Below are positions 873-4,150 of a DNA stretch of 7,027 nucleotides, piece by piece; the stretch's first letter is position 1; each line of letters opens with the position of its first letter. Location: NCBI GenBank assembly GCA_018903055.1, contig JAHIPW010000087.1, positions 1 through 7,027 on the forward strand, in the 5' to 3' direction. This stretch comes from DRGV01 sp018903055 [NCBI: bacterium] (GTDB lineage: Bacteria; UBP18; UBA7526). The notes beneath the pieces are model-generated. The model did no database searches. It worked only from the letters and a program-made list of their open reading frames with translations, and was not told the DNA's origin. A program made the position numbers and the translations under genes.

Positions 873-1166
873 TCATCTTCTCTCTCTTCCTCCTCCTCCT
901 CCTCTTCCTGCTTCTCTTCCCGTCCCTCTTCCTGCTCCTCTTCCCGTCCCTCTTCCTCCTTCTGTTCTTCCTCTCCGTGCTCGAGCAAGCCTTTTTCTCC
1001 TGCGCTTCTCGGCCTCAATCCTCTTCCTCCTTTTCTTCTCAGAGGGCTTCTCATAATGCCTTCTCTTCTTTGCCTCAGAGAGAATGCCTGATCTCTGGAG
1101 TGCCCTTTTAAATCTCCTCAGGGCCTCTTCAATGGATTCATGCTCTCTTAGCTCTATCTTCGCCAT
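873..1166 (-). CDS. rpsU: Small ribosomal subunit protein bS21 with Gly/Arg-rich tail
   Basis: Ribosomal protein of the 30S platform near the anti-Shine-Dalgarno end of 16S rRNA, involved in initiation. Residues 1-65 are classical bS21: [20 protein letters not shown], then [21 protein letters not shown] with the family signature HYEKPSEK (37-44). The start is ATG at 1166 with AAGGAGGTG about 8-10 bases upstream, a strong site. Typical bS21 is about 57-70 residues; this one runs to 97, and residues 66-97 are low complexity (15 Gly and 9 Arg of 32) with 8-residue periodicity (GRGTGRGA / GRGTGREA). The tail is encoded by a polypurine repeat tract in which all three minus-strand frames are open, so the exact C-terminus is less certain than the core; a frameshift error or slippage in the tract would change it. 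yqeY follows 137 bp downstream, the common rpsU-yqeY pairing. Confidence 0.93.
876..976. repeat. Polypyrimidine/polypurine tract with 12/24-bp tandem periodicity in the rpsU 3' end
   Basis: On the plus strand there is no A in 101 bases and only five G (910, 922, 934, 946, 964), four of them exactly 12 bp apart. The 24-bp unit 908-931 recurs at 932-955 with one mismatch and resolves into 12-bp sub-units such as CCGTCCCTCTTC. The tract encodes the Gly/Arg tail of bS21; the +1 frame reads as Glu/Gln-rich and the third frame as Lys/Arg-rich. Confidence 0.9.
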
Positions 1167-1189
1167 TCAATAAACACCTCCTTTTAAAC

Positions 1190-1233
1190 ACAGATTTACA
1201 CAGATTAATTACAGATTTACACAGATCACAGAT
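1190..1233. repeat. ACAGATTTACACAGAT direct repeat upstream of rpsU
   Basis: ACAGATTTACACAGAT is perfectly repeated at 1190-1205 and 1211-1226, followed by a partial CACAGAT (1227-1233). AATATCA is also duplicated at 1251-1257 and 1259-1265. The array abuts the rpsU Shine-Dalgarno and would form its untranslated leader. I see no convincing promoter in 1167-1427. Confidence 0.75.
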
Positions 1234-1268
1234 AATTGGAAATCTTTGGGAATATCAGAATATCATCT

Positions 1269-1354
1269 GCCGACAGGTCGGCCTTGAGTTCGGTGTTCGC
1301 CGCCCTTGGCGAGCCTCGCCTTCGGCGGGGAGACTCCCAACTCTCCCTCAGGGA
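1269..1354. repeat. GC-rich cluster of short palindromes between the HIT gene and rpsU
   Basis: Short perfect inverted repeats lie almost end to end: GCCGAC/GTCGGC (1269-1282, 2-base loop), GGCGA/TCGCC (1308-1320), CGCC/GGCG (1317-1327) and TCCCT/AGGGA (1344-1354). TCTCG/CGAGA arms follow just beyond. The motif ACTCCCAACT occurs twice nearby (1333 and 1383). None is followed by a clear T run on the minus strand, so a mosaic of REP-like repeats fits better than a simple terminator, although the hairpins could still attenuate read-through from the HIT gene into rpsU. Confidence 0.6.
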
Positions 1355-1427
1355 TCTCGAGACCCCTCGGGACGAGAGGCGAACTCCCAACTCCGAACTT
1401 TCTGAATTCGTATTGCTTCGCACTCTA

Positions 1428-1772
1428 TTAACCTGGAGGCCAGCCGAGTTTCCTTCCTCCCAAGAGATGGAAGTGGATATGGAAGACCTCCTGGCCAGAA
1501 TCCGGACCACAGTTGGCTACTACACGAAAGCCACACTGGGCAGTGGACTTCTCCTTGGCTAATTTATTGGCCACTAAATAGATGTGGCCGATTAGTTCCT
1601 TATCCTCTTCAATTAAATCTAAGAGAGTCGAGATATGCTTCTTGGGAATGATTAAAAGATGGACCGGTGATTGAGGGTTGATATCCTTTATAGCAATCAC
1701 TCTATCATCCTCATAGACTATCTCACTCGAGATCTCCTTCTTTATGATCTTACAGAAAAGGCACTCTTCCAT
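1428..1772 (-). CDS. HIT-family (HINT-like) nucleotide-binding hydrolase
   Basis: Small histidine-triad protein of the HINT/PKCI branch. Such proteins bind purine nucleotides and hydrolyse phosphoramidates such as AMP-lysine or AMP-NH2; the physiological substrate here cannot be read from sequence. Of two adjacent ATGs (1775 and 1772), the second is preferred because AGGAGG lies 5 bases upstream of it but only 2 from the first; the product is 114 residues (MEECLFCKI...). From 1772, C4/C7 form a CxxC that may bind zinc, NPQSPVHLLIIPKKHIS (32-48) is the family core strand, and HIHFHLL (98-104) is the histidine triad with the catalytic middle His. It ends GGRKLGWPPG, the usual family terminus, so the gene is complete. 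A HIT gene between mtaB and rpsU is a known clostridial-type arrangement. Confidence 0.95.
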   Translation of the reverse strand: MEECLFCKIIKKEISSEIVYEDDRVIAIKDINPQSPVHLLIIPKKHISTLLDLIEEDKELIGHIYLVANKLAKEKSTAQCGFRVVANCGPDSGQEVFHIHFHLLGGRKLGWPPG

Positions 1773-1788
1773 CATAGCCTCCTCATTT

Positions 1789-1910
1789 GGTTGGGGTTAA
1801 GGTTAGGGTTAAGTTGTTAGTTTAGTTGTTGGGTTATGTAGTTAGTCTTTGAAGACCTAACCCTTACCGAACTACCAAACCCACTACCTTACCCTAACCC
1901 AACTACCAAC
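1789..1910. repeat. Imperfect inverted-repeat element, copy A (mtaB-HIT gap)
   Basis: About 120 bp filling most of the gap between mtaB and the HIT gene. It starts with four GGTTRR-like hexamers (GGTTGG GGTTAA GGTTAG GGTTAA). It then has a G/T-rich arm, a central hairpin GTCTT/AAGAC around 1850/1851, and an A/C-rich arm. It has 89% hand-aligned identity over 80 bases to copy B at 4035-4150, in the same orientation, with one extra hexamer. No open frame is evident. As RNA it could fold into a long imperfect hairpin. Confidence 0.75.
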
Positions 1911-1929
1911 GACTTCAAACTTTGGCCGA

Positions 1930-3252
1930 TTAAGCTAACCTTCCTATGACATATCCTTTCTTTATCTCGCCAATCTTTACTCTTACTATTTTATTTACCA
2001 AGTTCTCCGGGCCATTAAAAGCTACTTTTATATAATTGTCTGTGAGGCCAGCCAAATAGTTATTCCTTCTTCTCTTTTCAACGAGAATCTCTAAGGTTTT
2101 ACCTAAAAATAGCCTACTGAATTCTTCCTGCATCTTTAAGGAGAGCCCTAATAATCTTTCACTCCTTTTTTTGATCTCTTGTTCTCCTACCCTTCTTTTA
2201 AGTTGGGCAGCAGACGTTCCGGGACGAGGAGAGTATTTAAAGACGTGCATCTTAGAAAACTTCATCTTTTTGGCAAAGTCATAGGTATTCTCAAATTCTT
2301 CTTTCTCCTCTCCTGGAAAGCCAACCATAATATCAGTGGTAATCGCCACCCCTTTCATTTTCTCCCTGATTTTCTCTATTAAATCTCGATAATAAAAAGT
2401 GTCGTAAGGCCGATTCATTGCTTTTAGAATCTTATTGTCTCCACTTTGTAAGGGGATATGGAGATGAGGGCAGACCTTGGGAAGCTGGGCAATTCTATCT
2501 ATCAATTCCTCATTCAAATCCCTGGGTTCTATAGAACTCAATCTAATGCGCTTCAGGCCTTCTATTCCAGAGACCCTTTCTAGGAGTATGGCAAGAGCGA
2601 CTTCGCCCTGTACCGTATGGTTCAGGGTTCTGCCATTTAGGTCCTGACCCCAGGAACCCAAACGGATGCCGGTGAAGACGATCTCCTTAAAACCGTTTCT
2701 TACCAGTCCCCCTATCTCCTCCAAGATATTCTCTAAGGGTCGTGACCTCTCTTTCCCCCGAACATAAGGGATGATGCAGTAGGAACAATAGTTTTGACAG
2801 CCATCCTGTATCTTGACGAAGGCCCTGGTGTGCGAATGGTGTTTACTTACTGAAAGTGTATCATATCTTGAGTAAGAGTCAATATTTTTTACAAAGATCT
2901 CTGACCTTGAGTTCTTTTCTCCTCCATTAAGAAAGGAGGTTATTCCAATCTTCTCTCCATTTCCTAAGATTAAGTCCACTCCTTGAATCTCGGCAATCTT
3001 TTGTGGAAATCTCTGGGCATAGCAGCCGATAACGGCAACAAGGGCCTCTGGATTCTTTCTGATAATGTTTCTTATCTGCTGGCGGGATTTCTGATCGGCT
3101 CTATTGGTTACCGTACAGGTATTGATGATGTAAATATCTGCTCCCTCTTCGCTGGATACTATTCTGTAATCCTCCGTCAGGGCCTCTCGCATGGCTTGAG
3201 TATCGTACTGGTTCACCTTGCAGCCCAGAGTATGAAAAGCAACACTTCTCAT
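1930..3252 (-). CDS. mtaB: tRNA (N6-threonylcarbamoyladenosine(37)-C2)-methylthiotransferase MtaB
   Basis: Radical-SAM enzyme converting t6A37 to ms2t6A37 in ANN-decoding tRNAs; the cytosolic counterpart of MiaB and RimO. 440 residues, normal length. N-terminal methylthiotransferase domain with cluster cysteines C11 (TLGCKVNQYD), C46 (INTCTVT) and C77 (IGCYAQ); radical-SAM CxxxCxxC at C152/C156/C159 (DGCQNYCSYCIIPYVRG); SPLQS-type motif HLHIPLQSGDNKILKAMNR (263-281); TTDIMVGFPGE (305-315); C-terminal TRAM-like domain (about 378-440). GCKVNQ, together with placement after rsmE, identifies MtaB (B. subtilis YqeV) rather than MiaB or RimO. Residues about 207-218 (GRTLNHTVQGEV) look like an insertion of about 9 residues relative to B. 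subtilis, encoded by a palindromic segment. The ATG overlaps the rsmE stop (ATGA). Confidence 0.96.
   Translation of the reverse strand: MRSVAFHTLGCKVNQYDTQAMREALTEDYRIVSSEEGADIYIINTCTVTNRADQKSRQQIRNIIRKNPEALVAVIGCYAQRFPQKIAEIQGVDLILGNGEKIGITSFLNGGEKNSRSEIFVKNIDSYSRYDTLSVSKHHSHTRAFVKIQDGCQNYCSYCIIPYVRGKERSRPLENILEEIGGLVRNGFKEIVFTGIRLGSWGQDLNGRTLNHTVQGEVALAILLERVSGIEGLKRIRLSSIEPRDLNEELIDRIAQLPKVCPHLHIPLQSGDNKILKAMNRPYDTFYYRDLIEKIREKMKGVAITTDIMVGFPGEEKEEFENTYDFAKKMKFSKMHVFKYSPRPGTSAAQLKRRVGEQEIKKRSERLLGLSLKMQEEFSRLFLGKTLEILVEKRRRNNYLAGLTDNYIKVAFNGPENLVNKIVRVKIGEIKKGYVIGRLA
2606..2627. repeat. Imperfect palindrome inside mtaB
   Basis: 22 bp: arms CCCTG (2606-2610) with CAGGG (2623-2627) and ACC (2612-2614) with GGT (2619-2621), one T/T mismatch between them, and a GTAT loop (2615-2618). 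It lies in the apparent insertion encoding about residues 207-218 of MtaB and is flanked by a GCGACTTCGCC motif (2598-2607). Confidence 0.6.
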
Positions 3253-3998
3253 CCCATATCACCCAATTCATATAATACCATAGCTAAAGTTACAAGGCCC
3301 GCGGTTTCAGTGCGCAGAAGTCTTGGGCCAAGGCTTACTGGAATCGCTCCTTTTTTCTTTGCCGCCCTTACTTCTTCAGGGGTGAATCCGCCTTCTGGGC
3401 CGATAAAGACCGTGATTTTAGATCCTGGATCCTGGATCCTGGATCGTTTTAAAACTTCTTTGAGGCTGGTAGATGTCTCTTCTTCCCAGGGAATTAAGTT
3501 AAGGCTTTCTCTATTTAAATTATCAAGGGCTTGGATAAAAGGGATGACTTCTCTGACCTCTGGAACGATTGCTCTGCCGGATTGCTTTGCGGCCTCAAGG
3601 GCAATCCTCTGCCAACGATTCCTTCGCGCCCTTGCCTTTTCTTCATTCAACTTAACAACCGTCCTCTGGGTGATGACGGGAATTATTCTTTTCACTCCCA
3701 GTTCCGTAACTTTCTGAACAATGAAGTCCATCTTATCAGACTTGGGTAATCCCTGAAGCAAAGTTATTTCAATTGGTGGCTCGGTATCTAATCTGCTCTC
3801 TTCCAAGATTCTCCCGATTACTTCTTTTTTGTTGACTTGAATTATCTCCGTTAAGTATTCCCTTCCTCCTCCAGTGAAGACCTTTATTTTATCTTTCTCT
3901 TCAAGTCTTAAGACCTGGGCGATATGTCTTGCCTCATCCCCCTTTATGGTAACCTGGTTTTCCTTAATATCTTTCTCTTCGATGAAGAAGCGCCTCAA
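3249..3998 (-). CDS. rsmE: 16S rRNA (uracil-1498-N3)-methyltransferase RsmE
   Basis: SAM-dependent SPOUT methyltransferase that modifies U1498 of 16S rRNA in the assembled 30S subunit. 249 residues, typical of the family. An N-terminal PUA-like RNA-binding part (about 1-70, with GDEARHIAQVLRL at 20-32) is followed by the SPOUT domain: KSDKMDFIVQKVTELG (86-101), RWQRIALEAAKQSGR (128-142), the knot segments FIGPEGGF (198-205) and LGPRLLRTETA (223-233). The start is TTG at 3998: GGAGG lies 5 bases upstream, and the resulting (M)RRFFI matches the usual family beginning. No ATG fits better. Residues 185-193 (RSRIQDPGS) come from a 7-bp tandem repeat and lie in the variable linker before the knot. 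The stop overlaps the mtaB start by four bases (ATGA), implying translational coupling. Confidence 0.96.
   Translation of the reverse strand: MRRFFIEEKDIKENQVTIKGDEARHIAQVLRLEEKDKIKVFTGGGREYLTEIIQVNKKEVIGRILEESRLDTEPPIEITLLQGLPKSDKMDFIVQKVTELGVKRIIPVITQRTVVKLNEEKARARRNRWQRIALEAAKQSGRAIVPEVREVIPFIQALDNLNRESLNLIPWEEETSTSLKEVLKRSRIQDPGSKITVFIGPEGGFTPEEVRAAKKKGAIPVSLGPRLLRTETAGLVTLAMVLYELGDMG
3421..3445. repeat. 7-bp tandem repeat (GATCCTG) inside rsmE
   Basis: Three perfect GATCCTG units (3421-3441) plus GATC. As 25 bases the repeat passes through the reading frame without a stop and encodes residues about 185-193 of RsmE, just before the conserved knot strand. Confidence 0.85.
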
Positions 3999-4034
3999 AA
4001 ATCCCTCCGGATTTAGTCTTATGGTTAATTACTC

Positions 4035-4150
4035 GGTTAGGGTTAAGGTTAGGTTGTTAGTTTGGTTGTTGGGTTAGGTAGTTGGTCTTTAAACACCTAA
4101 CCCTTACCTAACTACCAAACCCACTACTTTACCCTTACCTAATAACATAA
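4035..4150. repeat. Imperfect inverted-repeat element, copy B (dnaJ-rsmE gap)
   Basis: About 115 bp, G/T-rich in its left half and A/C-rich in its right half on the plus strand, pairing imperfectly about a centre at 4090/4091 (GGT-n-TTTAAA-n-ACC). It begins with GGTTAG GGTTAA GGTTAG hexamers. Hand alignment of 4061-4140 with 1821-1900 gives 71 of 80 identical bases, so this is a diverged copy of the element at 1789-1910. The right boundary is uncertain (4140-4153). It has no coding potential and may be transcribed as an RNA hairpin within the operon message. Confidence 0.75.

What the first reader, a model, noticed from the sequence alone, without database searches (positions are those of the whole stretch)
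1789..4150. Two diverged copies of an undescribed-looking inverted-repeat element in neighbouring gaps of one operon
1789-1910 and 4035-4150 are the same element: 71 of 80 hand-aligned bases identical (1821-1900 against 4061-4140), same orientation, each in a gap of the gene cluster. Each is an imperfect palindrome, G/T-rich then A/C-rich. Some pairing near the centre is kept despite substitutions: GTCTT/AAGAC in copy A, GGT..TTTAAA..ACC in copy B. This could be a MITE-like or REP-like family, or an RNA hairpin acting in operon processing. Seen: similarity and symmetry. Inferred: mobility or RNA function.
Basis: partly seen in the sequence, partly recalled or inferred. Interest (0 to 1): 0.6.

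Follow-up and report, generated by a model that had tools for sequence, protein, structure and literature searches.

The report
Nested palindromic repeats in operon gaps
The two look-alike sequences are members of a scattered family of hairpin-forming DNA repeats that has spread into gaps between genes of an uncultured bacterial lineage, often with smaller palindromes lodged inside them, and the enzyme that moves them has not been identified.

Summary
Both gaps hold copies of one ~115-nt imperfect palindrome (71/80 and 99/115 identical). It is a dispersed family: 25 copies on 19 contigs of the draft genome, and more in three related MAGs. No match was found in 92 sampled genomes outside the family; an exact-core scan of 84,980 species hit only those three MAGs. 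The dnaK operon is syntenic in five relatives, and both gaps lack the element wherever readable (5 of 5, 4 of 4), so both window copies look like lineage-specific insertions. Ten of 25 copies carry GC-rich palindromes at fixed sites, some with further inserts inside. Arms of 7-8-nt arrays pair across some cores. Orientation to genes is biased 43:8. No target duplication, matching transposase (four families) or covariation was found. Best reading: a non-autonomous, ERIC/MITE-like palindromic repeat that is itself a landing site for smaller palindromes, probably transcribed as a hairpin within operons. RNA function is unproven. New variant of a known kind.

The parts
1795..1909 (-). Copy A: core palindromic repeat between the mtaB-like gene and the HIT-family gene (strand given = transcribed strand of the operon)
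   Evidence: R1 match 127.5 bits on +; 99/115 identical to copy B; palindrome arms 1790-1834/1866-1910
4035..4149 (-). Copy B: core palindromic repeat between dnaJ and rsmE
   Evidence: R1 match 133.1 bits on +; used as query, finds 25 places in own genome
4177..5355 (-). dnaJ, upstream neighbour of copy B
   Evidence: ORF; 80-90% identical and syntenic in five relatives; name from sequence, recalled
3249..3998 (-). rsmE-like gene, downstream neighbour of copy B
   Evidence: ORF, one match in each of six genomes; name recalled
1930..3252 (-). mtaB/MiaB-like gene, upstream neighbour of copy A
   Evidence: ORF, syntenic in relatives; name recalled
1428..1775 (-). HIT-family gene, downstream neighbour of copy A
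   Evidence: ORF, 83-91% identical in the four relatives where it is on the stretch fetched; name recalled

Best explanation
The element is a non-autonomous dispersed palindromic repeat (core ~115 nt, T/G-rich half then C/A-rich half) that spreads by insertion into the short gaps between co-directional genes of one uncultured bacterial family. Shown: multiple copies, presence/absence at orthologous gaps, hairpin symmetry, orientation bias, palindromes lodged inside it at fixed sites, and outer palindromic arms around part of the copies. Inferred: (a) hairpins act as landing sites for other hairpins, so that short GC-rich palindromes enter the core and the core enters older 7-8-nt-array palindromes; (b) insertion happens on exposed single strands with one preferred polarity, which in a lineage whose neighbouring genes are nearly all co-directional appears as orientation bias relative to genes; (c) once inserted behind a stop codon the element is co-transcribed as a long mRNA hairpin and is tolerated there, with mild or no effect. 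The moving enzyme is unknown and need not be encoded next to any copy.
For: 25 copies on 19 contigs in 1.085 Mb; 51 main-family copies in four genomes on the tree. Empty gaps in relatives: dnaJ|rsmE 0, 0, 0, 14 and 81 nt against 179; mtaB|HIT 3, 44, 80 and 87 nt against 155, with no model match in these gaps. Ten of 25 copies in the genome carry inserts at fixed sites. I1 and the reverse I2 each need 6 changes on the copy tree. The 20-nt GC palindrome (up to 2 mismatches) lies at 25 places in the genome, reversed-pattern control 0, and its asymmetric form is preceded by G in 23 of 25 distinct sites examined. Own outer arms pair better than swapped arms (0, 0 and 6 of 5000 permutations for three distance windows; 20 of 68 copies above the 95th percentile of shuffles in the nearest window). 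Orientation 43:8, p 7e-7. 0 of 71 copies lie wholly inside a called gene.
Against: No target-site duplication signal, so insertion ends are not defined, and copy ends vary between subfamilies. No cognate transposase found in four families searched, though the genomes are drafts (53-93% complete). One copy (pnp|uppP gap) is shared by three species of two genera, so some copies are old. The copy tree is weakly supported (6 of 48 inner branches starred), so independent entry of inserts could instead be exchange between copies. Only 20 of 68 copies show clear outer arms. The fully or nearly symmetric form of the GC palindrome has a G neighbour on a side in only 4 of the 10 sites listed. Three of six main-family copies in G001 have the minority orientation.
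Confidence: 0.68

Rival explanations
1. A selected RNA element of operons: the co-transcribed hairpin stabilises, cleaves or attenuates the polycistronic mRNA, as proposed for ERIC in Yersinia, and copies are kept for that reason.
For: Copies lie between co-directional genes, median 26 nt after the upstream stop and 50.5 nt before the next start in 40 copies, with 43:8 orientation. Folds of A and B beat shuffles. One copy between pnp and uppP is conserved in three species. The sense strand is the more stable one in 25 of 39 insert-free main-family copies, p 0.11.
Against: Co-directional gaps are the norm in these genomes (349 of 355 in the same loci). No covariation beyond shuffles. No clear strand preference of folding energy over all main-family copies (27 of 51) or over all 50 antisense copies of any family (23 of 50). 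The same operon gaps lack the element in relatives.
Confidence: 0.2
2. A classical MITE: a deletion derivative of an insertion sequence, moved by a transposase that recognises its ends.
For: Size, palindromy, copy number, intergenic position and lineage-specific insertion fit.
Against: No target duplication signal. PF01797, PF01609 and PF00078 gave no match in any of six genomes, each with positive controls. The only intact rve transposase found in the own genome has 15-nt ends ACATAGGTAACACTT, unrelated to the element. No half-elements separated by a gene-sized stretch were seen in the own genome. Other transposase families were not searched and the assemblies are incomplete.
Confidence: 0.15
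3. Not transposition: palindromes grow and turn over in place by replication template switching and array slippage, and similar cores arise by gene conversion among gaps.
For: The same gap holds unrelated palindromes or arrays in different species (pnp|uppP; mtaB|HIT and dnaJ|rsmE). Many gaps carry strong hairpins of other sequences: 21 of 64 gaps with z below -3 against 1 of 58 coding controls.
Against: Cores 82% or more identical to copy B at 25 places on 19 contigs need copying between places. The GC palindrome keeps one sequence and, in its asymmetric form, a G-preferring entry site.
Confidence: 0.12

Closest known systems
ERIC/IRU (127-bp enterobacterial intergenic repeat)
   Same: Similar size, imperfect palindrome over its length, intergenic, position between co-transcribed genes; orientation matters for its RNA effect (passages of PMC2229807)
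   Different: No sequence relation known to me (not aligned here); found only in one uncultured family; no duplication signal; carries inserted GC palindromes at fixed sites
REP / GTAG- and CGTC-tagged palindromes
   Same: The 20-nt GC palindrome is REP-sized, dispersed and mostly has a preferred 5' neighbour. REPs lodged inside longer palindromes are already described (A. variabilis, T. roseum, H. neapolitanus; passages of PMC3733652)
   Different: 5' neighbour is mostly TG or CG, not GTAG; no Y1 transposase match in six genomes; the core is 115 nt
Yeast mitochondrial GC clusters (GC42)
   Same: Short mobile GC-rich palindromes that merge and shuffle, mechanism unsettled (passages of PMC4478555)
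   Different: Organelle; reported AG target nucleotides; not described in those passages as lodged in a 115-nt palindromic host repeat family
Correia/NEMIS and YPAL
   Same: Correia comes in 107-bp and 155-bp forms differing by an internal segment; YPAL targets span or adjoin dyad symmetry (passages of PMC2229807)
   Different: Both are listed there with target-site duplications; sequence relation not tested
Heptamer direct repeats (TAACTGA) of Beggiatoaceae
   Same: 7-nt intergenic arrays near start codons (abstract of PMC4679880), like the outer arrays here
   Different: Direct, not snap-back; different sequence; no nested elements mentioned in the abstract

Membership tests
MITE | short, non-coding, many dispersed copies | tested here: met
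   25 copies of a ~115-nt core in own genome
MITE | filled and empty orthologous sites | tested here: met
   both window gaps empty in every readable relative, 5 of 5 and 4 of 4
MITE | target-site duplication | tested here: not met
   own flanks no better than permuted flanks in 50 copies, three window sizes
MITE | ends shared with an autonomous element | tested here: inconclusive
   no PF01797, PF01609 or PF00078 match; the one intact rve element has other ends; drafts incomplete and other families not searched
REP (GTAG/CGTC) | 20-40 bp palindrome with GTAG or CGTC at one end | tested here: not met
   core is 115 nt; the 20-nt insert is preceded by TG 16, CG 5, AG 2, TT 2 of 25
REP (GTAG) | RAYT (Y1) transposase in genome | tested here: not met
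   0 of 6 draft genomes, 5 of 14 control genomes positive
ERIC | long palindrome in transcribed intergenic position | tested here: met
   transcription itself inferred from operon layout
ERIC | sequence homology to the enterobacterial 127-bp consensus | not tested
   no direct alignment made; exact-core scan of 84,980 species found only three MAGs of this family; no Rfam match above gathering score
Rickettsia palindromic element | in-frame insertion within genes | tested here: not met
   0 of 71 copies wholly inside a called gene; a few overlap a gene end by 4-11 nt, and one ORF call overlaps a copy in G004:C36
Structured RNA family | covariation supporting the helix | tested here: not met
   2 of 31 pairs with double changes, a number reached by 206 of 500 shuffles; score reached by 383 of 500

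The most novel reading that the evidence does not exclude
A self-nesting palindrome system: in a transposase-poor bacterial lineage, DNA hairpins are themselves the insertion targets of other hairpins (array palindromes, then 115-nt cores, then GC palindromes, then further inserts). They spread through exposed single strands at replication by a host or unknown enzyme, so operon gaps turn over among unrelated palindromes.
Probability: 0.2. Interest if true: 0.8.

Novelty: new variant of a known kind. Interest (0 to 1): 0.5.

Why it matters
Small palindromic repeats are common in bacteria, and how many of them move is unknown. Here a compact lineage in which four transposase or reverse-transcriptase families turned up almost nothing carries layered, oriented, site-preferring palindromes, and related species give empty sites for comparison. 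This makes the question of whether hairpins can spread without a dedicated transposase directly testable in sequence data.

Tried and rejected
Rfam: two sub-threshold matches (mir-3151, 30.5 bits against gathering 83; NEAT1_2, 21.8 against 60), judged chance. Viral contigs: no exact match to the core pattern. Co-directional placement as a signature of the element: dropped, since 349 of 355 gaps in the same loci are co-directional, as are 147 of 157 in a 160-kb stretch of G003. RNA strand preference by folding energy: 23 of 50 antisense copies of any family; for the main family 27 of 51, or 25 of 39 without inserts, p 0.11. Target duplications: no signal. Covariation: none above shuffles. Families searched in six genomes: PF01797, PF00078 and PF01609 none; PF00665 one intact (own genome) and one with a stop inside (G002), the former with unrelated ends. 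Other transposase families (IS110, IS256 and so on) were not searched. Naming the lineage: relatives are labelled only 'bacterium' (HyVt-354, CSMAG_2709, CSMAG_2758) and the one name search gave no more.

Rows dropped: the tree used 51 of 71 extracted copies; 19 were left out by a motif filter (other or too diverged sequence) and one for length. A2 used 32 of 37 candidate insert-free copies; I left out the last five of the list, all from the lower end of the score ranking. In one search three copies were judged from one neighbour only, the context of copy A was taken, and the neighbours of G001:C57 are far off (1476 and 619 nt). The 43:8 count is not corrected for shared ancestry: two orthologous groups (three and two copies) are in it; without the three extra members it would be 40:8. 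The 25 neighbour counts leave out loci under 900 bases and sites with more than one mismatch. One search scored only 150 candidates a genome and only part of them, so copy numbers in relatives are lower bounds.

Full report
What was checked. Similarity stops near the ends of the core. Both lie in gaps of a minus-strand operon dnaK-dnaJ-[B]-rsmE-mtaB-like-[A]-HIT-rpsU-yqeY (gene names recalled from sequence; order conserved in relatives).

A dispersed family. The window is contig C75 of a 1.085-Mb draft genome, 85% complete. A search of that genome with copy B gives 25 distinct places on 19 contigs. A covariance model of 15 insert-free copies finds copies in G001, G003 and G004 of the same family, weaker relatives in G005 and none in G002. 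Contig lengths identify G001, G003 and G004 with MAGs HyVt-354, CSMAG_2709 and CSMAG_2758. None of the 92 sampled genomes outside the family had a match at E 0.001. An exact core pattern over 84,980 species hit only those three MAGs, with the caveat that records very near the window's own may be left out, and hit no viral contig.

Insertions. The operon is syntenic in all five relatives, as far as the contigs reach. The dnaJ-rsmE gap is 0, 0, 0, 14 and 81 nt there, against 179 nt here. The mtaB-HIT gap is 3 to 87 nt in the four relatives where it can be read, against 155 nt. The model finds no element in any of these gaps. Both window copies are therefore best read as insertions in this lineage. 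One other copy, between pnp and uppP, is shared by G000, G003 and G004, while that gap has no match to the model in G001, G002 and G005; G001 and G005 carry unrelated palindromes there (by eye). Family members thus range from recent to old.

Nesting. Ten of the 25 copies in the own genome carry GC-rich palindromic inserts at fixed sites, 20 to 66 nt without what is nested in them. A ~35-nt insert (I1) lies after GTTTGG or GTTTAG, and a 20-nt insert (I2) in either arm at the palindrome-equivalent site TG^RGT. Three carry a further insert inside: I2 in L020, and I1 in L023 and in G001:C23, whose composite inserts differ by one base although the host copies fall in different starred branches. On the tree of copies without inserts, I1 and the reverse I2 each require six changes. 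Few branches are well supported, so repeated entry and exchange between copies cannot be told apart. The 20-nt palindrome is scattered by itself: 25 places in the own genome with up to two mismatches, reversed-pattern control none. In 25 distinct asymmetric sites over five genomes its 5' neighbour is TG 16, CG 5, AG 2, TT 2. The symmetric or nearly symmetric form does not share this: a G neighbour on at least one side in 4 of 10 sites listed. Outside the core, part of the copies have arms built of 7-8-nt arrays that pair with each other across the core: own arms beat swapped arms (0, 0 and 6 of 5000 permutations in three windows), with 20 of 68 copies individually above the 95th percentile of shuffles in the nearest window (these 68 include related families). 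In a 160-kb stretch of G003, 21 of 64 gaps of 80-450 nt fold with z below -3, against 1 of 58 coding controls; by eye, several of the strongest are snap-back arrays of other sequences, others are terminator-like or GC-rich hairpins.

Orientation. With codon-model gene calls, 43 main-family copies have the aligned strand antisense to the genes and 8 sense (p 7e-7); by genome 21:4, 10:1, 9:0 and, in G001, 3:3. Co-directional position itself is not informative, as 349 of 355 gaps in these loci are co-directional and 151 of 158 genes in the 160-kb stretch are on one strand. If genes follow replication in this lineage, orientation to genes equals orientation to the fork; that step is inference.

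RNA function. Sense-strand folds of copies A and B beat shuffles (z -4.3 and -2.5). But pairs with double changes number 2 of 31, reached by 206 of 500 shuffles, and the sense strand is the more stable one in 27 of 51 main-family copies, or 25 of 39 without inserts (p 0.11). The structure is preserved by common descent as far as can be shown, and an RNA role is neither shown nor excluded.

Mover. No Y1 transposase, reverse transcriptase or DDE_1 transposase match was found in any of the six draft genomes, with controls positive. One intact rve transposase in the own genome has 15-nt ends ACATAGGTAACACTT and no core match nearby. No target-site duplication signal is visible. The enzyme is unknown. 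The idea that hairpins are landing sites for hairpins is an inference from the nesting.

Comparison with the literature. ERIC, Correia/NEMIS, YPAL, RPE and REP are the nearest kinds (passages of PMC2229807 and PMC3733652). REPs lodged in longer palindromes are already reported there, and mobile GC palindromes that merge and shuffle are known in yeast mitochondria (passages of PMC4478555). Six text searches listed no paper that, from the titles and abstract openings shown, describes this family or three-level nesting; one search listed nothing at all. Most subscription papers are not held, so this is weak evidence of absence. I file it as a new variant of a known kind, palindromic dispersed repeats, and not as a member of MITE, REP or ERIC: a defining feature of each of the first two was tested and not met, and ERIC homology was not tested.

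Noticed in passing
window 1170-1427 and 185-300: Other gaps of the same operon hold 7-nt arrays (ACAGATTTACACAGATT; CAGTGATCAGTGAACAGT) and a composite of GC-rich palindromes around 1262-1400, resembling the nested inserts seen elsewhere (by eye).
   Followed up: partly
L172:6786-6887 (G004, HIT-rpsU gap): The same operon in G004 carries a related but different palindrome family (GGTTACGG...GCCCGTTTCGG) in another gap.
   Followed up: partly
L223-L230 (G003:C30:1-160000): 151 of 158 called genes lie on one strand over 160 kb, an extreme co-directionality.
   Followed up: no
window 873-1166: rpsU-like ORF has a long low-complexity Arg/Gly-rich C-terminal tail encoded by a 12-nt-period repeat; in the four relatives where it is present about 53 of its 97 residues align.
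   Followed up: no
G000:C25:6487-6604 and G003:C35:106914-107017: Orthologous gap next to lon- and clpP-like genes (names recalled) holds palindromes of two different sequence families in two species.
   Followed up: partly
G000-G005: Three families (Y1_Tnp, RVT_1, DDE_Tnp_1) gave no match in six draft genomes and a fourth (rve) only two, one of them with a stop inside.
   Followed up: partly
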